A stretch of DNA of 58,477 nt from Chloroflexota bacterium. GTDB taxonomy: Bacteria > Chloroflexota > Anaerolineae > Anaerolineales > Anaerolineaceae. The notes beneath the pieces are model-generated. The model was not told where the DNA came from and searched no databases. It saw only the letters and a program-made list of their open reading frames with translations. Of the stretch, positions 5,817 through 56,193 are shown piece after piece. The DNA is taken from NCBI GenBank assembly GCA_023406965.1, contig JAEXTI010000447.1, forward strand, positions 1 through 58,477, in the 5' to 3' direction. The stretch's first letter is position 1, and every line of letters starts with the position of its first letter. The position numbers and the translations under genes were made by a program.

Positions 5817-5844
5817 AATAAAAGGACGGCTGCACAAGCCGTCC
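5817..5844 (-). terminator. Intrinsic terminator of the zinc-ribbon gene
   Basis: GGACGGCT at 5824-5831 and AGCCGTCC at 5837-5844 form an 8-bp stem. On the minus strand it is followed by TTTTATTC. It lies about 100 bases after the stop at 5946 and faces away from the peptidase gene start. Confidence 0.7.
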
Positions 5845-5945
5845 TAACTTCTACTTTTCACCTCTCTGATCCCTGAGCCTCCCAAACCCTGGCCTCCGTA
5901 AACTTAGCAAGGGCTTTAGCCCGCGCGACAAAGAACCTCTGGTTC

Positions 5946-6509: not shown

Positions 6510-6543
6510 TTGTTACCTCTTCCGCCGCGTAAAATATTCCTTC

Positions 6544-38653: not shown

Positions 38654-39646
38654 TTATGTACATATTAAGTCGCAGAAAGCGTTCTCGAAGTTTCTGGTGC
38701 GAAGGTCGTCTTGGCGGATAAAGAATTGCAGGAATCCAGCATCTCCCCAGACCCTTCCCAGGGTAGATTCTAATCCGAAGAGCATTTCCACAGGCGCAAG
38801 ATGTTCGTTAAGATTATCTTTAATTCGTTCATACCGTTGCACTTCTTGTTCTAGCGCTTGTTCTTTTCCGGCTGCCACGACGGTTTCATGCATTTTTCGA
38901 AAGCGTTCGCGGTGCTCATGTTCACTTACATAGGGGGAAGGTTGAGATAAATAGAGGTAATGATACTGAACCATCAAGGGAAACCCATTCAGAGCCAAAC
39001 TCGCATCCTGATCAGGGTTTCCCCCCTGAAAGCCGTATCCATATCCCCCTATCCGCGTGGTTTCTGGCAGGCATTTGTCGATAGGGGGCAGCGTTTTTTG
39101 AAGTCCGGGCTGTGCTCTGGATTCGAGCTGGTCAAAGAAGATCTGCCAGTAATAATCCGGATCCATGGTGAAACTGGCGACAAAACGGATGAGCGCGGTT
39201 CTGGCTCCGATTTGATCCGGAGGCTGTAGATGAGATGGGGGTCGGGCGCGCACCAATTGATCCTTCGGTCCATCAAAAAACAGGACACGATGGGGGATGG
39301 AACCCTGCCCGTAAGGATCCCCAACGAAAAAGGTAAGCAAACCAACCTCCGGAAGGAGTGGATGAAAGCCGGGTTCCAGGTCTTCCAGGCGGATCTGGGC
39401 TACAAAATCGAGAGCTTTCCCGTTATGCTGAGGCCATTGCATGCCTTCAGGCAGGTCGGGCAGACCGTCTAGCCGGCTGAGTCCAATTTCCAGCACGGCA
39501 TCTCTGTCCATGATTTGCAAGTCTGCCTGAGAAAAAGCAGGTAAGAAATGTTGGAAGAGAAGTTCAGGATCGAACTTGCCAGCGCTATCAGCGATGTAAT
39601 CGCGATATAAGCTTTGCCAGCGCTGGTAGAGTTGTTGTGTGTTAAT
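38654..39646 (-). CDS. DUF1963 (YwqG-like) protein with likely non-ATG start
   Basis: Up to 330 residues. The core matches DUF1963: RLDGLPDLPEGMQWP (~58-72), LDFVAQIRLEDL and GLLTFFVGDPYGQG. The frame stays open 42 codons upstream of the TTG at 39520, reading LYQRWQSLYRDYIADSAGKF and LFQHFLPAFSQADL, up to a GGGGAGG site at about 39652-39658 just before an ATT at 39646. I therefore propose an ATT start; an internal TTG would be the fallback. Family members are poorly understood and often lie in toxin or polymorphic-system contexts. Here the gene borders the NACHT/caspase island. Confidence 0.62.
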   Translation of the reverse strand: MNTQQLYQRWQSLYRDYIADSAGKFDPELLFQHFLPAFSQADLQIMDRDAVLEIGLSRLDGLPDLPEGMQWPQHNGKALDFVAQIRLEDLEPGFHPLLPEVGLLTFFVGDPYGQGSIPHRVLFFDGPKDQLVRARPPSHLQPPDQIGARTALIRFVASFTMDPDYYWQIFFDQLESRAQPGLQKTLPPIDKCLPETTRIGGYGYGFQGGNPDQDASLALNGFPLMVQYHYLYLSQPSPYVSEHEHRERFRKMHETVVAAGKEQALEQEVQRYERIKDNLNEHLAPVEMLFGLESTLGRVWGDAGFLQFFIRQDDLRTRNFENAFCDLICT

Positions 39647-39841
39647 ACGTGCCTCCCCTGTCTACAATCCTCAGAACTCGATTGCTTGATGCGGCAAAAT
39701 CACGATCGACGGTTGGAGGGTGAAAACTCCGGTTCGTCTTATTCAATAAAATCTATATACACTTCGCTGTGTCGATCTAATTTTTAGCCAACCAACCATT
39801 GGATCACACCCGGATTGGAAACTTGTTTTATTTTCACTCAC

Positions 39842-39944
39842 CCCCGCTTCGCGGGGAAGATCTGCCTATGATTAATCCTTTGCCTTGCGCACCCAGAGGC
39901 CAGGACTCCAGAGCCCCAGAGTCCAGAGTCTCCGGCACCCAGAG
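39842..39944. repeat. Conserved 3' tail with cruciform, copy A
   Basis: A ~105-base sequence after the first NACHT gene, nearly identical to the tail of copy B and clearly related to copy C. It has a CCCCGC-TTC-GCGGGG hairpin (39842-39856) 88 bases past the stop, and CAGAGTC/CCCCAGAG heptamer words. DGR targets carry such hairpins downstream of the variable region, although usually closer to the stop. Confidence 0.65.
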
Positions 39945-42900
39945 TCAGGACGAGAAGAATGGGGAGCAAACTACCACACGAAAACCGAGGAAGTCGTAGG
40001 CGAAAACTGGGCCGTTCCTGTTGCGGGAGGCGCAGCGGGCGTTGACGGCATAGTTATCGAAGGAACCGCCGCGCAAGGTGCGCGCAGTGTCGCTGCCGGC
40101 CGACAGGTCTTCTCGCTGCGCTTTCTCCGCCGGGTTTTGCGGATAGGGGTAGCCGGCGAAGCTACTGGAAGTCCACTCCCAGACATTGCCGCTCATATCC
40201 ATCAACCCATAGGGACTGAGATTGGCGGGGAAGCAGCCCGGCGTGCTGGTGGCGCCCAGGCCGGCTTCAGCGAAGTTCACCATGCCGGGGGTGAGTTCCT
40301 GCCCCCACGGGTAGGCGCGCCGCGGCAGCGGGTTGGAGTCCTGCGGCGGCGCCCCGGGATCAACTATTTGGGAGATGGGGCAGATCAGCGCCTGGCGCGG
40401 AATGGTCCACCCGCCGCGAGCGGCTTTTTCCCACTGCGCTTCACTGGGCAGGCCAACCCGCTGGCCTTCGGGCAGGAAGCCTTTGTCGCGCCAGGTTTCC
40501 TCCAGCCAGCGGGTGAAGGCCAGCATTTCATACCAGGTGATGCCCACCACCGGGTGGTTGGGCAGGTTGAACGGTTCCCCAAAATCCATCGCGGCCTGCC
40601 GGTATTGATTCTCATTCCAGGCCTTTACCTTACCATTTTTCCACACCCTCGCATCAATCGCCTCGGGCCAGTAAGAACGTTTTTCATAGCCCCCGGCCAG
40701 CACAAATTCACTGTACTGGGCATTCGTCACCGGGCAGCGCCCCATCCAGTAGGCCGGCAGGGATAACTCGTGTTGAGGACGTTCATCCTTAGCGCCTTCC
40801 CCCTCCGGGCTGCCCATCCAGAACTCGCCTTCCGGCACGTAACAGAACTGCATGGCATCCACGCGCATAATCTCCGGGCGCGGATCGCCCAACCGGCCCA
40901 GCGCGCGCCCGGCCTCGGCCCGCTCCAGCGGCAGCAGGCTGCCGCCCAGAACCTGCACCAGCCCCGGCAGGAGCTTATCCAGGAAAGTCGCCCCCCCGAT
41001 GGGGACGTTATCCTGTTCCACGGCAGCCCGCCCCACCAGGGCAGTGATCTGCCCGGCCCACAGGAAGGCGCGTTCATGCTGCTCGCCTGGCCGGAATTCG
41101 CCGCCCAGGGTATATGCCAAATCCAGGAGGTCGGGGGCGCGGCGGTTGTAATACAGTTCCTCGAAGGCCAACTGTGCCGCCAGGTCCCAACTGTCGCCCT
41201 CGGCGGCATGTTTCAGGAAGGTGCGCAACCGGTCGCGCTGCCCGGCCAGCCAGGACCCGGCCAGGTATTCCTGGAAGGTGCGGTGGGGAAAGCTGTAGGA
41301 GGTGGGTTTGTTCAACTCGCCGCCCGCCCCCACCAACAGCCCGGCGCGCTGGTCGACGTAATCCAGAAAGTCTCCGGCCAGGGCCAGGCTGCCCAGGTGG
41401 GGAGATTGTTCCAGCAGGTCAATCACATCCTTACGCAGCAGGGCGCCCGCCCCGCCGCTGCGCGCGCCGGCGCGGTGCGCGGCATAGGCCAGGCTTTCCA
41501 TCACAGCGCGCAGCTTGAGATCGTTTTTCAAGAACTCGGCCAGGGTGTCATCGCCCACTTTGTGTTTTTGCCAGCGGCGCAGCAGCACATCCACGGCCAT
41601 GTTGTACAGCCGCACCCGTTCGCGCGGCAGCCCCACCTCGCGCTGGTGGATGATGGCCATGGTGGTCAGCAGCATGGGGTTGGAGGATAATTCTCGCAAA
41701 TCAGCCTGCAAGGCTGCATGAGCCAGGTCGTTGGCTCGGGCCTGGGCCTGCTCTTCGGTCAGGTGACCCAGCTCGTGTTGGGTGTTGTACCAGGCCTGGA
41801 CGAAGTCTCCAATCTTCTTTTTATCAAAGGGCGCCAGGGTGCGGCTGGTGAAATGCGGCAGGACGGCCTCGCCCACGTAGGAACGCACCCGGCAGGTGAC
41901 GATTACCCGTTGAAGCAGATAGCCCTTCAGCAGAGCATCCACCGCCAGGCGCACATGCCCGCGCAAGGACTGCGGCACCTCATCCAGTCCGTCCAGCACC
42001 AACAGGCAGGTCCCGGCCCGCAGGTGATCCTGTAGTATGTCGCAGAAATCGGCACACTCACTTCCGAGTTCCTCCCGCAGATACTCCGTAACTGCCTTGC
42101 GCAAGCCTTTTTCACCTTCACTAGCCGGCAAACGCTGAAGGTCAATGTCCGCCAGGCGCGTGGCCAGGTCGCGCAGGATGACTAAGACCGGCAGAAGGGA
42201 GGGAGACAGTCCCTCCGGCGGCTGCGCCTGCCCCAGGCACGCGGCGGCTTGCCAGCCCAGCAACTTTTTGACAAAGGTACTCTTTCCCGCTCCGGGATCA
42301 CCTAGCAAAACCAATCTTTGATGTTGCAAAGCTGCTTCCAGAGCTGTGACCTTTGTTTCATCGCTAAAGAAACCTTCTGTCTCAAAGCGGGCTTTACCTT
42401 CTTTTTTCCTCTGGATTTCCTTGTATTTTTGTAAGGAGATTTTTTCAGTAATTTCAAGGTCTATGTAAACCTTATCCAGGGTGATGTCGCTGTCCGAGCC
42501 ATCTTCTCCGCCCAAGGCCGCCAGCGGTAGGGATTGGCAGTAGCGGCGCAGGCGGGCCAGGTAAGCGTTGCGCGCCTTGCTGCGCTTTTCGGCGGCCGGG
42601 TCGGGAGGTGGGGGGTTAACCACCTGGTTCTCAACATAGGTTTGGGCCAGGAAATAATGTGTGTTGATGTCGCCGGTTGCATTGCCTTCAATCAGCACGC
42701 CTCCTGCTCCAACTGCTTTGGCTCCATTCCCTTGCGCAATCGCCCCGTTACCGTCCAGGTGGGCCTCGTAGTGTATTGTGCTGTTGAGCTGGGCGAGTTC
42801 CCTTTTCATCGTTTCAGCAAACCAGGTCCGGTCTTCGTCACTGAGGGCTTGCTCGGCCAACTGCGGAACCTGCAGAGCTTCCAGAATTTTGTCCAACGCG

Positions 42901-43196
42901 GCGCGCAGTTCGGCATCTTTCGCGACCTGCGTTTCCAGGGTCCGGGCGGCATCTACTTCGTCACTCCAGGCCTGGATCTGGTTGGAGATCAGGTTGACGC
43001 CCACCCCGCTCAATACGCCGCCCACAGCCATCAAAGCGGTAACATCCCCCTGACGAAACATTTCCACCACCGGCAAGAGGGCCGTTGCCGAGAGCATGGC
43101 ATAGGCCGAGTTGACCCCGGCGCGCGTCATGCGCTCGCGGAAACCGGGTAGTTTTTGTTTCAGCGCTTCTTTCCATTGTTGGATGTCAAATGCCAT
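39945..43196 (-). CDS. NACHT NTPase with C-terminal FGE-CLec domain (sensor A)
   Basis: 1,083 residues from the ATG at 43196, with GGGAGGGGTAAAG upstream. N-terminal domain with two hydrophobic helices (~28-75: SAYAMLSATALLPVVEMF, ALMAVGGVLSGVGVNLI), then the shared glycine-rich motif (GNGAIAQGNGAKAVGAGG, ~150-178). NACHT: Walker A GDPGAGKST (~299-307), Walker B LLVLDGLDEVP, sensor VIVTCRVRSYVG; a helical arm follows. The C-terminal ~290 residues are a formylglycine-generating-enzyme-like CLec fold (GEFWMGSPEGEG, MSGNVWEWTSSSF, LRGGSF). The last variable segment lies between LRGGSF and GFRVVV. STAND-type signalling ATPase with a lectin-like sensor; last gene of the four-gene set. Confidence 0.9.
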   Translation of the reverse strand: MAFDIQQWKEALKQKLPGFRERMTRAGVNSAYAMLSATALLPVVEMFRQGDVTALMAVGGVLSGVGVNLISNQIQAWSDEVDAARTLETQVAKDAELRAALDKILEALQVPQLAEQALSDEDRTWFAETMKRELAQLNSTIHYEAHLDGNGAIAQGNGAKAVGAGGVLIEGNATGDINTHYFLAQTYVENQVVNPPPPDPAAEKRSKARNAYLARLRRYCQSLPLAALGGEDGSDSDITLDKVYIDLEITEKISLQKYKEIQRKKEGKARFETEGFFSDETKVTALEAALQHQRLVLLGDPGAGKSTFVKKLLGWQAAACLGQAQPPEGLSPSLLPVLVILRDLATRLADIDLQRLPASEGEKGLRKAVTEYLREELGSECADFCDILQDHLRAGTCLLVLDGLDEVPQSLRGHVRLAVDALLKGYLLQRVIVTCRVRSYVGEAVLPHFTSRTLAPFDKKKIGDFVQAWYNTQHELGHLTEEQAQARANDLAHAALQADLRELSSNPMLLTTMAIIHQREVGLPRERVRLYNMAVDVLLRRWQKHKVGDDTLAEFLKNDLKLRAVMESLAYAAHRAGARSGGAGALLRKDVIDLLEQSPHLGSLALAGDFLDYVDQRAGLLVGAGGELNKPTSYSFPHRTFQEYLAGSWLAGQRDRLRTFLKHAAEGDSWDLAAQLAFEELYYNRRAPDLLDLAYTLGGEFRPGEQHERAFLWAGQITALVGRAAVEQDNVPIGGATFLDKLLPGLVQVLGGSLLPLERAEAGRALGRLGDPRPEIMRVDAMQFCYVPEGEFWMGSPEGEGAKDERPQHELSLPAYWMGRCPVTNAQYSEFVLAGGYEKRSYWPEAIDARVWKNGKVKAWNENQYRQAAMDFGEPFNLPNHPVVGITWYEMLAFTRWLEETWRDKGFLPEGQRVGLPSEAQWEKAARGGWTIPRQALICPISQIVDPGAPPQDSNPLPRRAYPWGQELTPGMVNFAEAGLGATSTPGCFPANLSPYGLMDMSGNVWEWTSSSFAGYPYPQNPAEKAQREDLSAGSDTARTLRGGSFDNYAVNARCASRNRNGPVFAYDFLGFRVVVCSPFFSS
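39990..40058 (-). other. DGR-like variable region A
   Basis: 23 codons between the invariant TTCCTTC... and CTCGGTTTTCG. Compared with B, 17 substitutions lie in 12 codons, all in first or second codon positions, none in third; all other bases in the surrounding ~45 bases on each side agree. Most variable codons end in C or T, the pattern left when adenines of AAC/AAT codons are mutagenised. See finding. Confidence 0.8.
42660..42752 (-). other. GAIAQG glycine-rich motif of sensor A
   Basis: GNGAIAQGNGAKAVGAGG then VLIEGNATGDINT. The same motif recurs in the other three proteins of the set (near 45993-46079, 46236-46343 and 49990-50085), in different places in the chain. Glycine spacing resembles left-handed beta-roll repeats. 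Confidence 0.7.
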
Positions 43197-43284
43197 CTTT
43201 ACCCCTCCCGGCATGGGATTCCTCGCTGGCCCAACTTGTTCAGCAGTCTACTTATTTATAGTATAGCTGTTTTCCACCTTTGCG

Positions 43285-43388
43285 CCCCGCTTCGCGGGGA
43301 AGATCTGCCTATGATTAATCCTTTGCCTTGCGCACCCAGAGGCCAGTGATTCAGAGCCCCAGAGAGTCAGAGGTATCAGTGGTCAGAG
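43285..43388. repeat. Conserved 3' tail with cruciform, copy B
   Basis: Same element as copy A; hairpin CCCCGC-TTC-GCGGGG at 43285-43299, 89 bases past the stop. Identical over most of its length to copy A, including GGGGAAGATCTGCCTATGA. Confidence 0.65.
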
Positions 43389-46181
43389 TTAAGAAGAGAA
43401 GAATGGGGAGCAAACTACCACACGAAAACCGAGGTTGACGTTGGCGTGATCTGGGCCGTTCCTGCCGCGGGCGGCGCAGCGGGCGTAGTCGGCAACGAGA
43501 TTGAAGGAACCGCCGCGCAAGCAATATATGATATCCTTTCCTTTTTCATCCTTTCCACCACCATTTCGATATTCTTGTTCAATATATACCTTTTCACGAC
43601 CATCTTGAGCAAGATACGGATAGGGTCGGTATAAACTCCGCGTCCATTCCCACACATTCCCGCTCATATCCAGTAATCCATCCGGGCTGGCCCCAGCGGG
43701 GAATGCACCAATAGGCGAAGGCCCGCCAATGGCGGTCTCATCATAATTGGCCCGGTTGGGGTCAATTCTTTCGCCCCACGGGTATTCTCTACCGTCTGCG
43801 CTCCGCGCGACTTTTTCCCATTCGGCCTCGCTGGGCAGGGTGACGCGCAGCTTGTTCTCCCGGATTCCATCCCAGAAGGGATGATCTAACCCTGCAAAGT
43901 CCTTGCCGGCAACGCTTAACCGCTGAGTCAACCAGTCGCAATACCCGATCGCATCAAACCAGCTAATATCCCGAACCGGATGATTGTCAAAACCACGCAA
44001 GGCACGCTCATAATTGCTTTCTTTCCCCGTGGCTGTGGCGAAGGCGCGAAACTGAGCGACGGTCACCGGGTATTTCCCCAGCCAATAATCATAAGACAGG
44101 TTGAGTTCATGCTGCGCTTTCTCTTCTCCCATAATGAATTTGCCCGCCGGAATCTTTACAAAACCCAGCGTTTCACCACACGGCAAGAACCATCGCTCCG
44201 GGTCAAAACGCGGGTCGCCCAACACACCGAGCGTATTCCCGGCCGCCACCCGTTCTTTGGGCGCCAGCTTCCCGCTCTCCAGCAGGTCTTTCAGGCGTTT
44301 TTGGCTGCGCTTGAGCAGGTCCCGCCCAAAGGCGCTGTCGCGCACACGCTGTAAACCGATTTCCTGCAGCACATCTCCCGCCAGCCAGGCCAGCCGCCAG
44401 GCGGCATCGCGATCGTCTATGTCATCCGGGCACAGCTCCGCCACCAGGGCCAGGGCCTTGTCCACATCCCCGTTGACGTACACCAGCTTGCCGGCAGCAT
44501 AGAGAATCGCCTCACGCCATAGGGCCAGGTCCTTTTGGGCAAGCGCCAGAACCTGCCTGGAGAAATCCGCCTGGGTTGCCAGGTGCGCCCCGGCCAGGTA
44601 TTCCTGAAAAGTTCGGTGAGGAAACGTGAACAGCTCCGGCTGGCGCTCCAACAGCAATCCCGCTCGCGTTTTCATCAGGTCAACCACGTTTTGGGCCCAG
44701 CTCAAGTCGCCCTCCGGGTTAGCTTCATCGCACTTCAATGCCGCCAGGGTCTTGAGAATCCGGTGCTCGCCGATGTCGGCCAGCCCATCCCCACCGGCAT
44801 CCGGCTTCACCGCCGCATGGGCATTGTAGGCCAGCTCCCACAGCGCGCGCTTGAGGTCCACGTCGGTGCGCCCGGCTTTGAGCAGGTACTGGCGCAGGCG
44901 CGGGGCATCTTCCTGCCCGCCCAGCTTGATCTGCTCCCAGCGCCACAGCAGAATGTCCACGGTTTCTTCATAGAGCAAAGCGCGCGCATCCGGCAGCCGC
45001 CCGCGGTGCGTGTGCACCAGGGACATGACCGTCAACAGCAGCGGGTTGGAGGCCAGGCGCTGCAGGTCGGGGCGGCGCACGGCCTCGCGCAAGCGTGCGG
45101 TGAGCGCATCCACATCCGCGGCGGGCACGCTGCCCAGGCGGCCCAGCTCGCCATACCAGCTGCCCACAAAGCGGTCGATTTTTTCCTGGTCAAAGGGCGC
45201 GATCTCGAAAGCGGGCAGCTCGGTCAGGCGCAGATCCGGCTTGCCTTTTTCGGGCTGTTGGTAGGAAAGCACCCGGCAGGAGACCAAAAAACGGCAGTTC
45301 GGATAGCGTTGAATCAAGGCACGCACGGCGTTGCGCACAAACAATCGCTGCGCCTGAGAGGGAACCTCGTCGAGGCCGTCCAACAGGACAATGGCTTTGC
45401 CCGCATCCAGCGCTTTTTCAATCGGCGTGGCGGCAAAGCCCAGGTTTTGGGCCGCAAGGCGGGCCTTGATGAAATCCAGCAGGTGGCACGGCTCGGCGCC
45501 GGCGGGCAGCTTATCCGCGTGGCCGCGGGCGAAATCGCGCAGGACGACGCTCACCGGCAGCAGGTCGGCTTCTTGCTCGGGCCAGCCGCTGAGGTGCTTC
45601 AGCCAGCCTCGCTGCGGCTCGAGGGCGTGGGCGGCCAGGCAGTGCGCCAGGAAGTTGCCAAAGGTGCTCTTCCCGCCGCCGGGGTTGCCCAGCAGCACCA
45701 AGCGCCGGTTTTGGATGGCTGCCTCGAGAACCGACAGAGGGCGCGTGTTTTCCTCACGCCCCAAAATAGAGTTTTCGGGCTTGCGTGCTTTTTTCTCCTT
45801 CTCAGTCAGCTTGACGGATTGCGTGGTATCCAGGTCCACATACACGTTTGCCAGCCCGATGGACTGCTGCGCCTGGGTGGGGTCGCTGACGCCCACGTCC
45901 ACGCCGCGCAAAGGCAGGCTGGCGGTGGCTTGCCTGACCATACGCAAGTAGATGGCCAGGCGCTTTTGATCCTCGGCAGGGTCCTCGCCCATGTAGATAT
46001 TGCCCTGGAAATTACCCTCCACGAGGACGCCGCCTTTGCCCACCGCTTTTCCGCCAGGTAGAGCAATGGCCCCATCCCCGTGCAGTTCAGAGTTGTGCGA
46101 GGCGGATTGTTCTTTTAGCCTAGCGATCTGCTCTTCCAGTTCGCGGATCTTTCGCTGAAGTTCATTGGAATCTTCGCTCAT
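43389..46181 (-). CDS. NACHT NTPase with C-terminal FGE-CLec domain (sensor B)
   Basis: 930 residues from the ATG at 46181. A short N-terminal coiled coil (LQRKIRELEEQIARLKEQS) is followed by the shared motif (GDGAIALPGGKAVGKGG, ~35-63). NACHT: Walker A GNPGGGKST, Walker B IVLLDGLDEVP, sensor FLVSCRVLSY. Helical arm, then FGE-CLec domain: GKFIMGEEKAQHELNLSYDYWLG, MSGNVWEWTRSLYRP, LRGGSF. Variable segment between LRGGSF and GFRVVV, same C-terminal CSPFFSS as A and C. It lacks the hydrophobic N-terminal helices of A, so the N-terminal effector part differs among paralogues while the sensor end is kept. Confidence 0.9.
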   Translation of the reverse strand: MSEDSNELQRKIRELEEQIARLKEQSASHNSELHGDGAIALPGGKAVGKGGVLVEGNFQGNIYMGEDPAEDQKRLAIYLRMVRQATASLPLRGVDVGVSDPTQAQQSIGLANVYVDLDTTQSVKLTEKEKKARKPENSILGREENTRPLSVLEAAIQNRRLVLLGNPGGGKSTFGNFLAHCLAAHALEPQRGWLKHLSGWPEQEADLLPVSVVLRDFARGHADKLPAGAEPCHLLDFIKARLAAQNLGFAATPIEKALDAGKAIVLLDGLDEVPSQAQRLFVRNAVRALIQRYPNCRFLVSCRVLSYQQPEKGKPDLRLTELPAFEIAPFDQEKIDRFVGSWYGELGRLGSVPAADVDALTARLREAVRRPDLQRLASNPLLLTVMSLVHTHRGRLPDARALLYEETVDILLWRWEQIKLGGQEDAPRLRQYLLKAGRTDVDLKRALWELAYNAHAAVKPDAGGDGLADIGEHRILKTLAALKCDEANPEGDLSWAQNVVDLMKTRAGLLLERQPELFTFPHRTFQEYLAGAHLATQADFSRQVLALAQKDLALWREAILYAAGKLVYVNGDVDKALALVAELCPDDIDDRDAAWRLAWLAGDVLQEIGLQRVRDSAFGRDLLKRSQKRLKDLLESGKLAPKERVAAGNTLGVLGDPRFDPERWFLPCGETLGFVKIPAGKFIMGEEKAQHELNLSYDYWLGKYPVTVAQFRAFATATGKESNYERALRGFDNHPVRDISWFDAIGYCDWLTQRLSVAGKDFAGLDHPFWDGIRENKLRVTLPSEAEWEKVARSADGREYPWGERIDPNRANYDETAIGGPSPIGAFPAGASPDGLLDMSGNVWEWTRSLYRPYPYLAQDGREKVYIEQEYRNGGGKDEKGKDIIYCLRGGSFNLVADYARCAARGRNGPDHANVNLGFRVVVCSPFFSS
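43434..43502 (-). other. DGR-like variable region B
   Basis: Codon-by-codon partner of region A with the same length and flanks. Differences with A: GAT/AAT, AAC/CTC, TAT/GTT, GTC/GAC, AAC/TAC, TCC/GCC, AAC/GGC, GTT/GAT, TTC/CAC, TAC/AAC, GAC/GTC, TTC/AAC (A/B). Third bases always agree. Confidence 0.8.
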
Positions 46182-46232
46182 GTTTGCCACCTTTGTGCCT
46201 GGAGAATCGCTAAAAAAGATCAACTTGAACGA

Positions 46233-47246
46233 TTAGTCTTGCGATTTATCTCCTGTCGTAATATTGCCTGTGACATTGCTACCAACCATGATGCTGCCCG
46301 CCCCAACTGCCTTCGAGCCTTTCCCCTGAGCGATTGCACCGTTGCCGATCATGGTGGCGTTGTACTGTCGCAGGTACCTCTCGCTCTTCTCTTTGCCGAC
46401 CTGACGGGCGCCGTCCGGGATCGGCTCGCTCTCATCAAAAACCCCCAGTGAGGTCGCGCCCTTGTAAAGCGCCACCGGAAACGGCCCCACGCCTTTAATT
46501 ACGGTCAGCTCGGCTTCCTGAGTCTGCCCAAAGGTTTCCGCTGCTTCTTTGGCCTCTTCAAAAATATACTCATACAAGCTGTACGCGCTGATGTAGCCGT
46601 TACGGTTGGGCGCGCCGCCCTTCAAGCCGCGCACCAGGGCATCGGTGAAAATGCTCAACTTGCCGTTGCCGATCCAGGAAATTTGCTCCGGGCGGCAGGC
46701 GGTGATGACAATGCGCCCCTCACCGGTGCCCAGCACGGCAGTGGTCAGCTTTTCGGGTGGAGGTTGGCTGCCGAGGGCTTCCGCTTCGGCGCCCAGGCTT
46801 TGCGGCGAGAGGTTGCCCGAATGACAGGCGTTGATCACCACCAGCAGGCGCTTGGCCTTGATCCCTTTGAGGGCTTTGAGGAAATCCTCCTCGCTGATGC
46901 CGGTGCCCGGAACCACCTTGAGGTGATCCAGCTTTGTGTCGTGGGTGGTGAGGTAGTAATTGCCATCGGTGCCCATCACACCGTGCCCGACGAAGAACAG
47001 GAACAGGGTGTTGTCTTCGGTGAGTTGCTTGCCCATCTCGGCCAGCGTAGAGAGAACTGCCGCGCGGGTGGTCTCCTGGTTGCGCAGCAATTGAACCTGC
47101 TCTGGCGGGTAGGCGCACAGGTCCTGATCCTGTAGGGCGACTGCCACCGCTTCGGCATCCGTGGCGGCGACGGGGACGTTGTGCGCGGACATGAGCTGGT
47201 ATTGGCCGACGCCGATGATGAGTGCATGCGCTTTGTCGAATGACAT
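46233..47246 (-). CDS. Caspase-like peptidase (C14) with GAIAQG motif
   Basis: 337 residues from the ATG at 47246, preceded by AGGAGG. The caspase fold shows AHALIIGVGQYQ, the catalytic His in FFVGHGVMG and the catalytic Cys in VINACHSGNLS, with the usual ~45-residue spacing. A C-terminal ~35 residues repeat the glycine-rich motif of the NACHT proteins (NGAIAQGKGSKAVGAGS), ending GNITTGDKSQD. Orthocaspases cleave after Lys/Arg and act as effectors in bacterial death or defence systems. Gene position between NACHT C and NACHT B, same strand, supports one signalling unit in which the shared motif recruits the protease. Confidence 0.9.
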   Translation of the reverse strand: MSFDKAHALIIGVGQYQLMSAHNVPVAATDAEAVAVALQDQDLCAYPPEQVQLLRNQETTRAAVLSTLAEMGKQLTEDNTLFLFFVGHGVMGTDGNYYLTTHDTKLDHLKVVPGTGISEEDFLKALKGIKAKRLLVVINACHSGNLSPQSLGAEAEALGSQPPPEKLTTAVLGTGEGRIVITACRPEQISWIGNGKLSIFTDALVRGLKGGAPNRNGYISAYSLYEYIFEEAKEAAETFGQTQEAELTVIKGVGPFPVALYKGATSLGVFDESEPIPDGARQVGKEKSERYLRQYNATMIGNGAIAQGKGSKAVGAGSIMVGSNVTGNITTGDKSQD

Positions 47247-47272
47247 ATTGCCTCCTGAAGAATTACTCGCGG

Positions 47273-47376
47273 CCCCGCTGTGCGGGGAAGGTTTGCCTTT
47301 GATAAATTTCTTTGTCTTGCACACCTAGAGGCCAGGGATTCAGAGCCCCAGAGCCCAGAGTCGCCAGCGGGCAGAG
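47273..47376. repeat. Conserved 3' tail with cruciform, copy C
   Basis: Same element as in A and B with more divergence; hairpin CCCCGC-TGT-GCGGGG at 47273-47287, 89 bases past the stop. The stem is conserved while the loop differs (TTC in A and B). Confidence 0.62.
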
Positions 47377-50214
47377 TCAGGACGAGAAGAATGGGGAGCA
47401 TACTACCACACGAAACCCGCCGTTGAGACCGTCGGCGAAGCCTGGGCCGACCCCGCGGCGGAAGGCGCAGCGGGCGAAGTCGGCAAGGCTACTGAATGAG
47501 CCGCCGCGCAAGCAATAATTGATATTCAGTCCTGTTCTAAATGTCCGATTGTACTCTCGATATTCTTGTTCAGTATATGCTTTTTCACGGCCATCTTGGG
47601 GATTGTACGGAAAGGGACGAAGCAAGCTACGCGTCCATTCCCAAACATTGCCGCTCATATCTAGCAATCCATACGGGCTGACCCCGCCGGGGAAAGCACC
47701 AACCGGTGAGGTTTTCCAAATATCAGTCTCAGTGGTATTCGCACGGTTGGGGTCAAATATATTATTCCACGGGTATTCCCCGCCGTATACGCCCCGCGCC
47801 GCTTTCTCCCATTCTGCCTCGCTAGGCAACGTGACCTGCAGCATGTTTTCCCGGATTCCATCCCAAAATGGATGGTCTAACCCTACAAAGTCCTTGCTGG
47901 CGACGACTAACTTCGGAGTCAACCAATCACAATACGCGATCGCATCGAACCAGGCAATATTCCTAACCGGATGATTGTCAAAACGGCGCAAGGCATGCTC
48001 ATATTCCTTTTCCGTGCCCGTTGCTGTGGCAAAGGCACGAAACTGTGCAACAGTTACAGGGTATTTCGCCAGCCAATAATCATAAGACAGGTTGAGTTCG
48101 TGTCGTGGTTTCTCATCATTAAACCGATCGGCTCCCATGATAAATTCACCCGCCTGGATCTTTAAAAATCCCATCGTCTCTCCACGCGGCAAGAACCAAC
48201 GCTCCGGGTCAAAACGCGGATCGCCCAGCACGCTGAGCGTATTCCCGGCCCTAACACGCGTGTTCGGCGTGGTGGATAAGCTAGCTCCTTCAAATGCCCG
48301 GCAAAGTTTTTTAGCTTGAGCTTTGCGCAAGGTGGAATCCGGTTTCTCGATCTCCAAAATGGCTGCGGCGGCCAGTTCCAGCCCGGCCAGGCGAGTTTCT
48401 TCGGGCTCGAGCTGTTCCAGCCAGGTGAGATATTCGCTCGAGAAAATGCTGTAATCGGCGCGGGCAATACCGTAAAACAGCAAGCATACTTCTCGCCACC
48501 AGGGAATCGTTACATAAGGATGCAGCGTCGCCAGCCCTTTCTCCCTTTGTTGCACGAGCAGGCGCGCCGCCAAGAATTCCTGGAAGGTGAGGTGAGCAAA
48601 CTGGAAAAGCTCGCCGCGCTCCTCAAACAACCCACCGCGCAAACGCACTGCCATGATGAAGTTGTTCAGGCGGATTTCATCCATGCCGGGATAGGTTTTC
48701 AAGATGGCATGCAGCCGTTCTTCCGGGATGGCAGCTCCATCACGGCCACCGCGGTGCATTTCGAGCGCCAGGAAAGACAACCACTGGCGTTGTTCCTCCC
48801 AATTGCCACTCCAATTGACCAGTTCTTTCTGGGAGTCGTCATTTTCAAGATACTGCGCCTGCAAGATCACCTTCACCGCCGCTTCATACAGCTTGGCACG
48901 TTCACGCGGTAGTTCGTCTTCGCCCCACTTGACGCTCACCACCATGGTGGTCATTAATGGCGTGTTCACCAGGCGCGGCAGATCCTGCGACTCATTACGC
49001 CCATTAATCTCCTGAATGGCGCGGACGACCTCACGGGTTTGAGATTCAACCGCTTCCGGGTATAACTGCTGGCACCAGTTGTGCGCCAACTGCCCGATCT
49101 GATTATCATCAAGGGGCTGGACATCCAGCCGAACAAAATCGTCGCCAAAAACAGCATCCTCCCGATAGCCTGATTCGCGGGCCGTGACCAGGATCATGTT
49201 GCCCGGATAGATATCATTGGCGAGGACTTCAACCTGGGTTTTCACCTGGCCTCGTTCCGAGCGGCTGACGACCTCATCCAGACCATCGAGAATTAACAGA
49301 CAGCCCCCTCCCAGCAACAGGCGATCAAAGAAATCTTCCGAAAGCTCTAACGCCGGGCTGCGGCGCATCAGGTACCAGGGGATAAAGCCGGCCAGTTTAC
49401 CAGTGCGCGGTTTTTTGAGTTTTTCGGCGGGTGCTTCTCCGCAAATACGCTGGTATTCGCGGTAATATCGCAGCGGGATGAGGAGTGGAAGAAGCTGCTT
49501 ACGCTGCTTTGGCAGGTCAACCGGAGCTATACGTCCGCTCAAGGCGGCCTGGGCCAGGCTGGCCGCCAGGTAAGCTGCTAGCGTGCTCTTGCCGCAGCCT
49601 GCCCCACCGACCACCGCCAGGCGGTCCTGGATGGTGAGAAGCAACTTTAGCTGGATCTCTTCGCCATCCTTACGGTGATTGTCGACGGCCCGCATATAGG
49701 CGCGTTGCCGTGCCAGCGGGTCGCCCTTGAACTCGCTTGCCATTTCTTCAATTTCATCCCGACTGGGGGGCGAGAAGCGGCGCAAGGTGAGCGGCACGAA
49801 CACGTCAGCCAGCTGGCGGCGGGGCTGATCGCGAGTGGTGGGCAGGCTTTCCAGCCCGTAGAGGCGCGCCTTGCCGTATGCCTTGACCACCCAGGCCAGA
49901 TACTCACGCAGGATGCGTTCGAATTCAACTTTAGCAAGTCGCGCTTTCTCAGCAGAGGCTTCATAGTGATTAAAAAAGTAATTCACCGTGCCGGTGTTGA
50001 TGCTCCCACCGACATCGCCATCCACGATTACCGCCTGCTTGCCGGCTGCCCGTGCATCCTGTCCCTGCGCGATTGCGCCAGCGCCAATCAGTTTGGCTTC
50101 AAGGGAAGCCTTTTCTGCCAACAGAGTCTTGTGAGCTCGGGTGCCTTCTTTGAGCGTCTCCAGTTCTTGTTGGATCTCTTCCAGTTCTTTGCGCAGATCG
50201 TCGGTGTTGGGCAT
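47377..50214 (-). CDS. NACHT NTPase with C-terminal FGE-CLec domain (sensor C)
   Basis: 945 residues from the ATG at 50214, with GGGGAGAAG upstream. A short coiled coil (LRKELEEIQQELETLKEG) precedes the shared motif (GAGAIAQGQDARAAGKQ, ~44-75). NACHT: Walker A GGAGCGKST, Walker B LLILDGLDEVV, sensor ILVTARESGYR. Helical arm, then FGE-CLec domain: GEFIMGADRFNDEKPRHELNLS, MSGNVWEWTRSLLRP, LRGGSF, and variable segment to GFRVVV. The variable region is one or two codons longer than in A and B and the flanks differ slightly. First gene of the four-gene set; a 10-base inverted repeat overlaps its ribosome site. Confidence 0.9.
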   Translation of the reverse strand: MPNTDDLRKELEEIQQELETLKEGTRAHKTLLAEKASLEAKLIGAGAIAQGQDARAAGKQAVIVDGDVGGSINTGTVNYFFNHYEASAEKARLAKVEFERILREYLAWVVKAYGKARLYGLESLPTTRDQPRRQLADVFVPLTLRRFSPPSRDEIEEMASEFKGDPLARQRAYMRAVDNHRKDGEEIQLKLLLTIQDRLAVVGGAGCGKSTLAAYLAASLAQAALSGRIAPVDLPKQRKQLLPLLIPLRYYREYQRICGEAPAEKLKKPRTGKLAGFIPWYLMRRSPALELSEDFFDRLLLGGGCLLILDGLDEVVSRSERGQVKTQVEVLANDIYPGNMILVTARESGYREDAVFGDDFVRLDVQPLDDNQIGQLAHNWCQQLYPEAVESQTREVVRAIQEINGRNESQDLPRLVNTPLMTTMVVSVKWGEDELPRERAKLYEAAVKVILQAQYLENDDSQKELVNWSGNWEEQRQWLSFLALEMHRGGRDGAAIPEERLHAILKTYPGMDEIRLNNFIMAVRLRGGLFEERGELFQFAHLTFQEFLAARLLVQQREKGLATLHPYVTIPWWREVCLLFYGIARADYSIFSSEYLTWLEQLEPEETRLAGLELAAAAILEIEKPDSTLRKAQAKKLCRAFEGASLSTTPNTRVRAGNTLSVLGDPRFDPERWFLPRGETMGFLKIQAGEFIMGADRFNDEKPRHELNLSYDYWLAKYPVTVAQFRAFATATGTEKEYEHALRRFDNHPVRNIAWFDAIAYCDWLTPKLVVASKDFVGLDHPFWDGIRENMLQVTLPSEAEWEKAARGVYGGEYPWNNIFDPNRANTTETDIWKTSPVGAFPGGVSPYGLLDMSGNVWEWTRSLLRPFPYNPQDGREKAYTEQEYREYNRTFRTGLNINYCLRGGSFSSLADFARCAFRRGVGPGFADGLNGGFRVVVCSPFFSS
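47419..47493 (-). other. DGR-like variable region C
   Basis: 25 codons between TCATTC and GGGTTTCG. Compared with A and B it has more changes, including two third-position differences and an extra codon (GGC) near the end. It may have been copied from a different or older template. Confidence 0.7.
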
Positions 50215-50224
50215 ATATACTTCT

Positions 50225-50263
50225 CCCCTTGTTGAGAACTTGATATCACTATACAACAAGGGG
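50225..50263. promoter_or_regulatory. Inverted repeat covering the start of sensor C
   Basis: CCCCTTGTTG (50225-50234) and CAACAAGGGG (50254-50263), perfect 10-base arms 19 bases apart, immediately upstream of the start codon at 50214. On the mRNA the stem would include the ribosome site (AAGGGGAG); the interior holds TATAGT on the minus strand. So either an operator over the promoter or a translational switch. Confidence 0.55.
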
Positions 50264-50298
50264 ATTTTTCAAGCAATAAATTCGCGTCCGATTATTTA

Positions 50299-51411
50299 TT
50301 ACCAGAACCGCTGATTGGTATGGGTAATTAGTTCAAACACATGCCCGTTATCGTGATCATTCGTGCGCCCCAAGAGATTCTTGACCCACCGATCGGGCAA
50401 GGCATCTTTCCCGTGTAGCGCACCCACGGCTGCTCCGACGATGGCAGCAACGGTGTCGTTGTCCCAAGTGTCATTGACCGCCCTGACCAGCGCCTGTTCA
50501 GGGTCGTGACCATACCGCATGAGGATGTACAGGGTACTGGGAACGGTTTCTAGCAGGAAAGCGCCGGACCCCCAGGTGTTGCCGGCCTCCAGAGTGGACC
50601 AGTCTTCCTCCATTGCTTTAGGCAGTTCCTGTTGGACGAACTGCCACAGTGGGCCGTGATGAACCAGGTTGGGCATCCGAGGCGAGTAGATCGTGTTCTG
50701 TCCTTCCAGCGCTTCGGCCACCTGACAGTACCGTTCCATCCACCAGGAGGGATCGGGAGGTTGTTGCATGGATAGCAAATCCCACAGCATGGCGGTGAAG
50801 GCCACGCAGGCAGCGTTGGAGGACTGATCATTGTGGGTAACCATCCCGGCCAGGGCTGCGTCAGCCCACAGCCCGCAGGAGGGATGCTTTAGGTGCGGCA
50901 CCACCACGGGGGCGATGCGCATCAAGGCGCCGTTGCCGGCGGAATTGGGGCCGGCTGTGCGCCAATTTTTGCTGGCCTTGTACTTGCTGATGAACTCGCG
51001 GACACTGCTGCCAATGCCAAAGATTTGCTCCTGGCAAAAGCGCTGCGCCAGATGATCGGGATCGAGCCCGCCATCTTCCAGCAACACCTCCAGCGTCCAG
51101 AAGCTCATCTGGGTGTCGTCGGAAGGCACTCCTACCTTGCGATATCCTGCGTGCTGGTTAGGAAGGTAATCGTCGATCTGGCCATGGCGCTGGTTGCGAG
51201 TAAGCGGGGGCTGGGATTCGGTGGTGTTGCCCAGTGAGTCGCCGATGGCCAGGCCAAGGAGCATCCCTTCGATGCGATCAAAGGAGAAGTCTGTGGGTAG
51301 GGGAGGTGGGGTGGTCCAGAGGAAGGGGTGGTCCTCAAGGGCGATGGCGTGTTCGGCCAAGAGGGTGTGGAATAATTGACTGTTATCCGTAACAGGATCA
51401 GTAATCTTCAT
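50299..51411 (-). CDS. ADP-ribosylglycohydrolase family protein
   Basis: 370 residues. The metal-binding signatures of the DraG/ARH family are visible: MLLGLAIGDSLGNTTES (~48-64), SDDTQMSFW (~96-104), and NDTWDNDTVAAIVGAAVGALHGKD (~315-340), where the two acidic clusters hold divalent metals. It removes ADP-ribose from proteins or other targets; such enzymes often accompany NAD-dependent toxins or defence systems. Sits next to the NACHT/caspase set. Confidence 0.88.
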   Translation of the reverse strand: MKITDPVTDNSQLFHTLLAEHAIALEDHPFLWTTPPPLPTDFSFDRIEGMLLGLAIGDSLGNTTESQPPLTRNQRHGQIDDYLPNQHAGYRKVGVPSDDTQMSFWTLEVLLEDGGLDPDHLAQRFCQEQIFGIGSSVREFISKYKASKNWRTAGPNSAGNGALMRIAPVVVPHLKHPSCGLWADAALAGMVTHNDQSSNAACVAFTAMLWDLLSMQQPPDPSWWMERYCQVAEALEGQNTIYSPRMPNLVHHGPLWQFVQQELPKAMEEDWSTLEAGNTWGSGAFLLETVPSTLYILMRYGHDPEQALVRAVNDTWDNDTVAAIVGAAVGALHGKDALPDRWVKNLLGRTNDHDNGHVFELITHTNQRFW

Positions 51412-51438
51412 AATAGTCTTTCCTCAATCAAGGGGAGC

Positions 51439-52350
51439 TTATCCTCGATATACTGTTTCATTGTGCCATTTTAGGAATTCTGTCGACGGACGGAACGCAG
51501 CTTTGGCCGGAAGCCTGATTACACTGCCATGATGCCGGTAATACTCCCGCCCGTTTTCAAACTCCTCCTTGATTCTTCGGCTGACCTCGAGCGTATATTC
51601 TGGCGTGATGGTCAGGTAGCCCCGGTCAAATAGTGCGTGCAGGTCTTTCCGCATCAGGATACCGTTGCTCACTTCAAGTGGGCCATGTTCAGCATAAGGT
51701 TTGATGTGGGCGGCGTCCAGGGCCGGCAGGGTGCGTTCGTTGGTGACTGCACAGCGCCGTTCGTACGCATCGGTCACAAGCACCCGGAAGGAGCCTTGGC
51801 CGAGACGCGGAAGAATGAGAACCGGTTTCCCGTAGCGGTCACGCTCATCGCGGACCATAGGAGCCATTGGCACAGCAGATTGTACCTGTCGCCATAGCGA
51901 AAGTCCCGGCTCCTGCATCAGGTCGTACGAGCGCCCCACCACGATATTGGGGCTCCACCCCACGGGAGTGGGGATCCACAACTCTTTGGGCAGGAAGAAG
52001 GGTTGTTCAAGAAGGATGCAGCCAAGGGTGTAATCTTCCAGGCGGTTCTCTGTTTGCCGGCGATATTTTGCGACTCGCCTGCGCATTTCGGGCAGGTCTT
52101 TGGCCCCATTGGCCAGGCCGAAAGACTCCCATGCTAATGAAATTGGCAGCAAGCTTGAGTGCGCGAAGAAGCCCCCTCCAACGATGTAGTTATTCGGGCT
52201 ATGTAGTTTGAATAAGAACAATTCGCCTGGTTCAAGGGCCCGAAATTGAGTTTTACCCGACGGCTGCCAGAAGTTAACCTCATCCAGGTGTGACTGGTTA
52301 CTCAAGAGTTTGAACCAATCCCAGTCAGTGATGCCAACGAAGAGTTTCAT
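51439..52350 (-). CDS. HNH endonuclease with N-terminal ASCH/EVE-like domain
   Basis: 303 residues. The C-terminal HNH nuclease is clear: ALDAAHIKPYAEHGPLEVSNGILMRKDLHALFDRGYL (His, Asn, His; ~205-245). The first ~90 residues (FVGITDWDWFKLL...FLFKLHSPNNYIVGGGFFA) have the look of an ASCH/EVE-like domain that could read modified bases, suggesting a modification-dependent restriction enzyme. The substrate is inference. Confidence 0.82.
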   Translation of the reverse strand: MKLFVGITDWDWFKLLSNQSHLDEVNFWQPSGKTQFRALEPGELFLFKLHSPNNYIVGGGFFAHSSLLPISLAWESFGLANGAKDLPEMRRRVAKYRRQTENRLEDYTLGCILLEQPFFLPKELWIPTPVGWSPNIVVGRSYDLMQEPGLSLWRQVQSAVPMAPMVRDERDRYGKPVLILPRLGQGSFRVLVTDAYERRCAVTNERTLPALDAAHIKPYAEHGPLEVSNGILMRKDLHALFDRGYLTITPEYTLEVSRRIKEEFENGREYYRHHGSVIRLPAKAAFRPSTEFLKWHNETVYRG

Positions 52351-52512
52351 CTAACACCTACCTTTCAAGAATAGGTAGTCCTACGGCCCATTTATCCATT
52401 ACCCAAAAGATGTAAGATTGTGGCAGCGATGTAGAAATCAATAATTCAATCGGCAATCACCTTAGATTACGTTTTCCGTCTGAGACCAATCAACAAGAAT
52501 GCTCGGTGATCT

Positions 52513-52779
52513 CTACTCCAACAGCGTATAGTTCTTGATCAGGCTGGACAACGGTTTGCCCATTTCCTTAACGGTCTTCATCCCGGTGTAGTCTTTCACG
52601 TACCGCCCGATCATCGAGTTGGTGGTGGCGTAATCGCCATCGGCGAACTCGTGATAGCGCTTGAGATACCCAGGGTTTTGCTCGATGGCCAGGAACACCC
52701 GGTCAATGATGTTGCAGGGCCAGCGCCGGTTGGGATAGGCATGTAAGATGGCGATAATCATATCCTCGATTTCTTCCAT
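52513..52779 (-). CDS. Small hypothetical protein in defence island
   Basis: 88 residues from the ATG at 52779, preceded by AGAGGAACC; an upstream in-frame start is less well placed. Sequence MEEIEDMIIAILHAYPNRRW, GDYATTNSMIGRYVKDYTG. No motif recognised. Convergent distance to the HNH gene is 162 bases without a gene. Confidence 0.55.
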   Translation of the reverse strand: MEEIEDMIIAILHAYPNRRWPCNIIDRVFLAIEQNPGYLKRYHEFADGDYATTNSMIGRYVKDYTGMKTVKEMGKPLSSLIKNYTLLE

Positions 52780-52987
52780 GGTTCCTCTAGTTGCTTTTAC
52801 CAACCTTTGCTTCTTTTAGCTTGTACGTCAGCATTAAGTGTATCGAGTCTATTATAGCGAAAGTAGCGCAGTTTCTTGCACGGAGCCGTTGCACTAACTC
52901 GCGCCTTGAATCCCGTGGCATTCGGAGTAGTTTGGGCTTCGGGATGGGATTGGGCTGGCAGATCCTGCACGATCGGTGAACTTCATC

Positions 52988-52993
52988 TATAAT
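52988..52993 (+). promoter_or_regulatory. -10 box for the type I R-M operon
   Basis: TATAAT at 52988-52993, inside a short palindrome (CTATAATTTATAG), 34 bases before the hsdR start. No good -35 at 16-18 bases, so an activator or an extended -10 may be needed. The rest of 52780-53027 shows no gene. Confidence 0.4.
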
Positions 52994-53027
52994 TTATAGG
53001 AGTTCAATTCCGTCGCAGGAAAACAGT

Positions 53028-55379: not shown

Positions 55380-55390
55380 GGAGAAATAGA

Positions 55391-56170: not shown

Positions 56171-56193
56171 CAATCCAACTGGAGTTACCCTCA

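What the first reader, a model, noticed from the sequence alone, without database searches (positions are those of the whole stretch)
39945..47493. Three NACHT-lectin genes carry DGR-type hypervariable 3' ends
Seen: the last lectin segment of the three genes (39990-40058, 43434-43502, 47419-47493) is variable inside otherwise near-identical DNA. A and B differ at 17 bases in 12 codons; all are in first or second codon positions, none in the third, and 14 of 17 have A in one of the two copies. Flanking TTGCGCGGCGGTTCCTTC and CTCGGTTTTCGTGTGG are identical in A and B. Known: DGRs mutagenise adenines of AAC/AAT codons in C-type lectin/FGE folds through reverse transcription of a template repeat. 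Inferred: these are remote DGR targets, i.e. sensors whose binding surface is diversified. No reverse transcriptase or template is in the window.
Basis: partly seen in the sequence, partly recalled or inferred. Interest (0 to 1): 0.95.

Follow-up and report, generated by a model that had tools for sequence, protein, structure and literature searches.

The report
Hypermutable immune sensors with address tags
Three neighbouring immune-type sensor genes of an uncultured, likely Chloroflexota, bacterium end in a short segment with the mutation pattern of a diversity-generating retroelement, followed by a phased repeat that also sits beside dozens of paired targets of such elements, so they are likely hypermutated by machinery encoded elsewhere, and the repeat would serve as the address tag that marks a gene for hypermutation.

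Summary
Genes A, B and C (39945-50259, minus strand) are NACHT-FGE proteins whose last lectin segment varies between A and B at codon positions 1/2 only (17 of 17 changes), inside otherwise identical DNA. Of these 17 bases, 14-16 are adenines in each of eight template repeats (TRs) of related elements. No reverse transcriptase (RT), Avd or TR is in the window, and no whole genome is held, so the machinery is unseen. New evidence supports target status: directly after each stop codon lies an array of CTCTG units 7-9 bases apart, then a GC hairpin. In 60 RT loci of a class taken to be Anaerolineae, 50 TR/VR pairs were found; 45 of 50 variable repeats (VRs) carry such an array and 0 of 50 TRs do. 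A sequence-only model of 22 such tails, none from this window, finds exactly three matches in the window: the three gene ends. DGR-diversified NACHT-lectin sensors and trans-acting DGRs are published (Doré 2024). The array was not found in the papers I could search. I judge these genes remote DGR targets, with the array as likely address tag for retrohoming. Whether diversification is still active cannot be told.

The parts
39945..43214 (-). Gene A, 1089 aa: NACHT + C-terminal FGE-sulfatase (C-type lectin fold) domain
   Evidence: Pfam PF03781 E 7.8e-47, PF05729 E 2.4e-6
43389..46223 (-). Gene B, 944 aa: NACHT + FGE
   Evidence: Pfam PF03781 E 1.6e-42, PF05729 E 3.3e-6; AlphaFold2 model of its FGE part, pLDDT 92
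47377..50259 (-). Gene C, 960 aa: NACHT + FGE
   Evidence: Pfam PF03781 E 2.6e-46, PF05729 E 1.1e-10
46233..47324 (-). Caspase-type peptidase (PF00656) between B and C; its C-terminus carries the same Gly-rich motif as A, B and C
   Evidence: Pfam E 1.2e-16, PADLOC caspase E 1.1e-19, motif
39987..40058 (-). Variable core of A (24 codons)
43431..43502 (-). Variable core of B (24 codons)
47419..47493 (-). Variable core of C (25 codons)
39945..39986 (-). Conserved 3' segment of the A VR (GGTTTTCGTGTGGTAGTTTGC... to stop), IMH-like by position
   Evidence: IMH role inferred
43389..43430 (-). Same segment of B
47377..47418 (-). Same segment of C
39893..39944 (-). Phased TCTG array after A (CTG spacings 16,7,8,8,7)
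   Evidence: model R1 match 39896-39933 E 1.2e-5
43337..43388 (-). Phased TCTG array after B (7,9,8,8,8,7)
   Evidence: R1 match 43339-43389 E 1.7e-8
47327..47376 (-). Phased TCTG array after C (7,9,7,8,8)
   Evidence: R1 match 47328-47377 E 1.2e-7
39842..39856 (-). GC hairpin CCCCGC-GAA-GCGGGG after A (GRA-type triloop)
43285..43299 (-). GC hairpin CCCCGC-GAA-GCGGGG after B
47273..47287 (-). GC hairpin CCCCGC-ACA-GCGGGG after C (loop not GRA)
42666..42752 (-). Gly-rich motif GNGAIAQG... in A, candidate adapter
45996..46079 (-). Same motif in B (GDGAIALPGG...)
49999..50085 (-). Same motif in C
46260..46346 (-). Same motif at the caspase C-terminus

Best explanation
The 3' ends of the three NACHT-FGE genes are likely remote targets of a diversity-generating retroelement whose reverse transcriptase, Avd and template lie elsewhere in the genome. 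Shown here: (1) each gene ends in a module of about 236 bp made of a variable lectin segment, a conserved 3' segment with the stop codon, a phased TCTG array and a GC hairpin; genes that are otherwise divergent share it. (2) A/B variation sits almost only where templates of related elements have adenines. (3) The array is a VR-side feature of related cellular DGRs and is not found at their templates. Inferred: the element copies its template into an adenine-mutagenised cDNA. The conserved 3' segment primes or receives it. The array and hairpin mark the site for the RT-Avd complex and so let one element serve several genes in trans. The cDNA replaces the VR and changes the binding face of the lectin-fold domain. 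Untested: binding of an invader component would switch the NACHT ATPase, and the Gly-rich motif shared by the sensors and the caspase would bring the protease in for a suicide response.
For: A/B: 17 changes, all at codon positions 1/2, all 24 third positions identical. 14-16 of the 17 varying bases are adenines in each of 8 distinct TRs of relatives against 11-18 of the 55 non-varying bases: Fisher p 4.4e-8 to 6e-5; with positions 1/2 only 6.6e-5 to 0.0062. These TRs are related, so the tests are not independent. A relative with the same NACHT-FGE architecture has TR, bAvd and RT in cis (L004). TR/VR homology ends just before the array: CTCTG counts 6,6,6,5,5,3,2,1,1,0,0,0 in 12 VR tails against 0 in all 8 TR tails. 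In 60 RT loci of the class of G005, 43 had TR/VR pairs, 50 pairs: at least 3 TCTG in 80 nt in 45 of 50 VR tails and 0 of 50 TR tails, Wilcoxon p 1.5e-9. Model R1 finds exactly the three gene ends in the window. Three CTCTG triplets in the window, 0.01 expected. GAA triloops in A and B fit the GRA loops reported for archaeal DGR hairpins (PMC4372165, passages). The FGE model matches FGE enzymes and the DGR protein TvpA, 2y3c.
Against: No RT, Avd or TR was seen for this organism. No sister strain was found among the 120 best proteins listed in each of two searches, and protein B stands as one member sequence on 3 contigs, so variation in a population is not shown. The closest genome (G001, 51-55% protein identity) has four such modules but no DGR-type RT in its draft; G004, G006 and G007 also lack one while holding an arrayed VR-like end (clear in G006, at a contig edge in G004, frame-broken in G007). 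So modules can exist without visible machinery. B/C shows no adenine excess, C has an extra codon and 2 non-adenine changes in codons 1-20, and the C hairpin loop is ACA.
Confidence: 0.87

Rival explanations
1. Relict targets: the modules were made by a DGR, but this genome has since lost the RT or TR and the segments now drift.
For: G001 has four modules and no DGR-type RT; none of 393 genomes searched in its class has one at E 1e-60 (the tool notes that an empty answer without a known positive shows nothing). G004, G006 and G007 are similar. C has non-adenine changes and an extra codon.
Against: A and B share all 24 third codon positions of the core while varying at 17 first and second positions, which argues for recent copying from a template. 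Drafts miss loci.
Confidence: 0.1
2. No retroelement: the three ends are paralogues homogenised by gene conversion, with positive selection on a binding loop.
For: The tail, which retrohoming would not copy judging from where TR/VR homology ends in relatives, is also 81-85% alike between the genes, so ordinary recombination has moved the module.
Against: Selection does not explain 0 of 17 third-position changes together with coincidence with template adenines and the VR-side tail.
Confidence: 0.03
3. On the array alone: it is not a homing signal but a Rho-type or other transcription end of the target mRNA (phased C/T units, then a hairpin).
For: It lies right after the stop codon on the coding strand; Rho binds spaced pyrimidine pairs (recalled).
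Against: In this window it occurs at the three VR genes and nowhere else on either strand; a general terminator should end other genes too. It starts where TR/VR homology ends in relatives.
Confidence: 0.2

Closest known systems
DGR-diversified STAND/NACHT lectin sensors of multicellular bacteria (Thiohalocapsa PB-PSB1 DGR 3 and 6, clade 5D; Doré et al. 2024, PMC10907252, abstract and passages read)
   Same: NACHT or nSTAND1 fused to a VR-bearing C-type lectin/FGE domain, duplicated targets, peptidase neighbour, proposed antigen sensors; trans activity inferred for some targets
   Different: Here three targets and a caspase in one cluster with no RT or TR in 58 kb; a word search of that paper gave 0 for 'hairpin' and 'downstream of', and no VR tail array is reported in the passages read
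Remote DGR targets of cyanobacteria (Vallota-Eastman et al. 2020, PMC7517822, passages read)
   Same: Remote lectin-domain targets with VRs at gene 3' ends; the authors suggest that cis-acting features might activate remote targets
   Different: They name cruciforms or IMH sites as candidates; no phased array is reported in the passages read
BPP-1 DGR target site: VR, IMH, downstream hairpin (Guo et al. 2011, PMC3240598, passages read)
   Same: A VR-side element beyond TR/VR homology is needed for efficient retrohoming; GC stem
   Different: Hairpins 4-34 bp after the VR with GRNA tetraloops in the phage elements listed there; here an array of about 50 nt lies between, and two of the three loops are GAA triloops
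Bacterial NACHT defence proteins (bNACHT)
   Same: NACHT ATPase core with another C-terminal part
   Different: FGE/lectin sensor with DGR-type VR; no defence activity tested; PADLOC gave no NACHT-named hit at E 0.01

Membership tests
Diversity-generating retroelement (target part) | VR varying at template adenines, codon positions 1/2 | tested here: met
   Indirect, no own TR: positions 9/8/0 and coincidence with adenines of 8 TRs of relatives. The B/C pair alone shows no adenine excess
Diversity-generating retroelement (target part) | C-type lectin/FGE fold carrying the VR | tested here: met
   PF03781; AlphaFold2 pLDDT 92, Foldseek hits FGE enzymes and TvpA 2y3c
Diversity-generating retroelement (target part) | GC hairpin downstream of VR | tested here: met
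   6-bp GC stems at all three ends, GAA loop in A and B, ACA in C; could also be a terminator
Diversity-generating retroelement (whole element) | DGR-type reverse transcriptase | tested here: inconclusive
   None in the window; genome not held
Diversity-generating retroelement (whole element) | Template repeat | tested here: inconclusive
   None in the window; 0 exact matches of the VR pattern in viral contigs and genome contigs
Diversity-generating retroelement (whole element) | Avd-type accessory gene | tested here: inconclusive
   None in the window; found by phmmer in 67 of 71 related RT loci
Cellular DGR VRs with phased TCTG tail (class proposed here) | TCTG units at 7-9 nt directly after the VR, absent after the TR | tested here: met
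   for the window; in relatives 45 of 50 VR tails, 0 of 50 TR tails
Bacterial NACHT (STAND) anti-phage sensors | NACHT/STAND ATPase domain | tested here: met
   PF05729 over cut-off in all three
Bacterial NACHT (STAND) anti-phage sensors | Protection against phage | not testable with these tools
   No experiment available

The most novel reading that the evidence does not exclude
Cellular DGRs find their targets through an address tag: a ruler of about five to seven C/T-rich units 7-9 bases apart, lying between VR and hairpin, that docks a multimeric RT-Avd-RNA complex. Because the tag travels with the VR as one module, any gene that gains the module by recombination joins the set that one element hypermutates in trans; the window shows three such sensors and the sister genome four. 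The tag can be searched for, so the hidden set of remote hypermutable immune genes can be read from genomes without finding the element first.
Probability: 0.5. Interest if true: 0.88.

Novelty: new variant of a known kind. Interest (0 to 1): 0.72.

Why it matters
How a DGR recognises its target, above all a target far away, is known in detail for one phage element (recalled; Guo 2011 is the study). A phased array that sits on the VR side only, in Chloroflexota and in the same or a related form in some Proteobacteria and cyanobacteria, is a concrete candidate for the missing recognition element and can be tested directly by deletion and respacing in a reporter. It also gives a sequence search for remote targets, which a large survey says it would miss (Roux 2021, PMC8144416, passage read). 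For immunity, it supports a bacterial repertoire of NLR-like sensors diversified by reverse transcription and possibly wired to a caspase.

Tried and rejected
Tried without result: VR pattern in viral contigs (0) and genome contigs (0); a 20-base conserved segment in viral contigs (0) and in the loci held (0 of 240); own-genome RT search (no genome held); DGR RT of L004 in viral contigs (2 loci at 36-37% identity, not pursued); VR DNA in 393 genomes of the class of G001 (0; the tool notes that an empty answer shows nothing without a known positive); protein B in the same 393 (only G001 at E 1e-100); sister-strain variants by protein search (none among the 120 best listed); Rfam in 39600-50400 (nothing at E 0.5); pairing between array and template RNA (CAGAG 15, CTCTG 56 in 29,661 bases around TRs; no excess of the complement). 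A first RT motif scan had the motif order reversed and was redone. The YadA-head reading of the Gly-rich motif stayed below cut-off (E 0.23). Loci L013, L018 and L019 had adenine-biased repeats without a DGR-type RT motif in the locus.

Considered and rejected: a simple tandem repeat (spacings run 7-9-7-8-8-7 in several tails rather than one constant); a general intergenic repeat of this genome (the window has it only at the three VRs). A different dispersed repeat, CTCTGYGTCYTCTGYGTCTCTG, does occur in relatives and makes up at least 30 of the 72 clusters read.

Rows dropped or chosen by hand: 34 VR ends for the hairpin count, the window's three included; 21 tails; 22 of 36 tails for model R1; 57 of the 80 loci L001-L080 for the R1 search; 60 of the 78 genomes with a DGR RT, one locus each, best scores first; one codon of C left out of pair counts. 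The odds of the relict rival went from 0.2 to 0.1 and of gene conversion from 0.04 to 0.03, because with the main reading they summed to more than one.

Full report
What is there. Genes A (39945-43214), B (43389-46223) and C (47377-50259), all on the minus strand, encode NACHT proteins with a C-terminal FGE-sulfatase domain; a caspase-type peptidase (46233-47324) lies between B and C. The best genome match is a Chloroflexi MAG (51% identity; L001), and some protein relatives are labelled Chloroflexota, so I take the organism to be Chloroflexota; this is inference. No whole genome is held.

The observation. A and B differ at 17 of 72 core bases in 12 codons, at positions 9/8/0; 14 of 17 sites show A in one copy. 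Identity of A and B is 27% in the last 40 aligned columns before the segment (22 comparable bases), 85% from there to the stop, 85% in the tail to the hairpin and 39% beyond it. The shared unit is thus a module of about 236 bp, not just the variable segment. Pairs with C are weaker: A/C 23 changes (10/12/1, A in 15), B/C 19 (10/8/1, A in 9, no adenine excess). In codons 1-20, before its extra codon, C departs from bases shared by A and B at 7 sites; 5 are A in A and B, 2 are not. Beside the extra codon the alignment is uncertain.

Test against templates of relatives. TRs with the same 24-codon length could be read in eight cis elements (L005, L051, L057, L061, L092, L095, L096, L099). Of the 17 A/B variable bases, 14-16 are adenines in each of these TRs, against 11-18 of the 55 others (Fisher p 4.4e-8 to 6e-5). 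Restricted to codon positions 1/2, p is 6.6e-5 to 0.0062. The eight TRs are related to each other, so these are not eight independent tests.

Relatives. L004 (Ardenticatenia MAG) has the same architecture with everything in cis: a NACHT-FGE gene with VR 4565-4638, bAvd 4799-5143, TR 5194-5267 and RT 5480-6535. L005, L006, L020, L029, L051, L057, L061 and L080 also showed adenine-biased repeat pairs and the SQ-type RT motif. The closest genome, G001, carries four copies of its own module on four contigs, aligned. Its only RT hit has the QG..SP motif, not the SQ motif. G004, G006 and G007 also lack a DGR-type RT although each has an arrayed VR-like end: clear in G006 (L158), at a contig edge in G004 (L152), frame-broken in G007 (L210). 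Either these drafts miss the element, or modules persist without it.

The tail. After the stop codons of A, B and C comes an array of CTCTG units and then a hairpin. The window holds three CTCTG triplets, 0.01 expected in shuffles, all at these ends. In eight cis elements the TR/VR homology stops just before the array; CTCTG counts are 6,6,6,5,5,3,2,1,1,0,0,0 in 12 VR tails and 0 in the 8 TR tails. The zeros and ones are L057 (cyanobacterium) and L061 (methanotroph), which have CTTT/CTCT units instead, and L095, which has no array. Of 21 hand-chosen tails from cyanobacteria and proteobacteria, 16 had a chain of four or more units 6-10 nt apart (11 with CTTT/CTCT units, 5 with TCTG), 5 had none; 7 of 2200 random windows of these loci did.

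Systematic test. A search of 396 genomes of the class of G005 gave a DGR RT in 78. I take that class to be Anaerolineae because G007, titled 'Anaerolineae bacterium', and G002, titled Thermoflexus, are listed in it. I fetched one locus from each of 60 of the 78. 43 of 60 showed TR/VR pairs, 50 pairs in all, one of which (L322, second pair) looks spurious. At least three TCTG within 80 nt: 45 of 50 VR tails, 0 of 50 TR tails, 0 of 50 stretches upstream of the VR; means 5.1, 0.4 and 0.4, and 1.8 in shuffled VR tails; Wilcoxon p 1.5e-9. The five low ones are L285 and L299 (CTG units with other first letters), L296 twice (CTTTGG-like units) and the spurious pair. Spacings peak at 7 (74), 8 (44) and 9 (29). 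In 36 tails, which have units at 0, +7 and +15/16 by construction, a further unit lies at +22/23 in 30 and at +29 to +32 in 24. The window arrays read 7,9,8,8,8,7 (B), 7,9,7,8,8 (C, from its first unit) and 16,7,8,8,7 (A).

Blind search. A sequence-only model (R1) of 22 of these tails finds three matches in the window at E up to 10, exactly the three gene ends: 1.7e-8, 1.2e-7, 1.2e-5. In 57 of the 80 related loci it finds 16 matches at E up to 0.05; 15 lie at VR-type 3' ends and one (L067) does not. Not all VR-type ends in these loci were hit; cyanobacterial ones were not.

Genome-wide specificity. In eight relatives' genomes I fetched 68 regions around the CTCTG triple pattern, which hold 72 clusters; one further place, the VR end of L004 itself, was not fetched again. 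By regex 16 clusters follow a VR-type end, one of which (L159) is false because of a stop. Reading 14 regions more closely added six (L152 at a contig edge, L167, L174, L175, L181, and L210 with a broken frame), so 21 of 72. At least 30 of the others belong to a different dispersed repeat. The pattern is thus enriched at VR ends but not exclusive to them in those genomes.

Hairpins. 16 of 34 hand-chosen VR ends (the window's three included) have a perfect GC-rich stem of at least 6 bp within 235 nt, against 2.1 expected by base shuffling. A and B have GAA loops, C has ACA. Paul et al. 2015 report GRA triloops in one group of archaeal DGR hairpins (PMC4372165, passages), and Guo et al. 2011 GRNA tetraloops 4-34 bp after phage VRs (PMC3240598, passages). 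A terminator role is not excluded.

Fold and partners. The FGE part of B models at pLDDT 92 and matches FGE enzymes and the Treponema DGR protein TvpA. A Gly-rich motif (GxGAIAQG...) occurs before the NACHT domain in A, B and C, at the caspase C-terminus, and in 58 of 165 proteins held. That it couples sensor and protease is inference, parallel to the effector-associated domains described by Doré et al..

How it works, my reading. An element elsewhere reverse-transcribes its template with errors at adenines; the cDNA replaces the VR at sites marked by the 3' segment, array and hairpin. The array would explain why several genes can be served in trans and why the whole module, tail included, is shared. 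bAvd is present by phmmer in 67 of 71 RT loci, so a docking role for the RT-Avd complex is plausible but not discriminated here. I found no excess of the array's complement near templates.

What is known. DGR-diversified NACHT-lectin sensors, trans activity and the immune-repertoire idea are published (PMC10907252, abstract and passages). Remote targets and the suggestion of cis features are in PMC7517822 (passages). For the array I searched the held library with 'CTCTG' and with tandem repeats, direct repeats and 'downstream of VR', and looked at passages of ten DGR papers (PMC3240598, PMC3521204, PMC10907252, PMC12875486, PMC10053308, PMC6642488, PMC7517822, PMC8144416, PMC6199706, PMC4372165): no such array. 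Full texts and supplements were not read through, and Wu et al. 2018 is not held, so prior mention is not excluded.

Noticed in passing
window 46260-46346, 42666-42752, 45996-46079, 49999-50085: A Gly-rich motif (GxGAIAQG...AVGxGGVxVxGNxxGxI) is shared by the caspase C-terminus and the N-terminal parts of all three NACHT genes; candidate homotypic adapter, no Pfam family over cut-off.
   Followed up: partly
G001 (L001/L109, L016/L110, L111, L112): Closest relative genome has four dispersed VR modules with arrays but no DGR-type RT in its draft; none of 393 genomes of its class rang at E 1e-60.
   Followed up: partly
G001, G004, G007, G008 (e.g. L185-L203): A different dispersed intergenic repeat of the type CTCTGYGTCYTCTGYGTCTCTGYGGT recurs in these genomes; its resemblance to the VR array is unexplained.
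   Followed up: no
window 30307-32855: A large serine recombinase (31170-32855) overlaps the start of a mevalonate decarboxylase-like gene (30307-31281): possible insertion edge of a mobile island that holds the NACHT cluster.
   Followed up: no
window 50299-57744: The cluster is followed by an ADP-ribosylglycohydrolase, an HNH endonuclease and type I restriction-modification genes: a defence-like neighbourhood.
   Followed up: no
L005, L087, L096 and several of L271-L330 (e.g. L272, L275, L277): Right after the array many VRs have two G-runs and one C-run (GGGGGG...GGGGGG...CCCCCC), so two alternative hairpins are possible.
   Followed up: no
L018 19158 and 19223: Viridilinea contig has minisatellite-like arrays of TTCTCTG (7 and 8 CTCTG units) with no VR beside them.
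   Followed up: no
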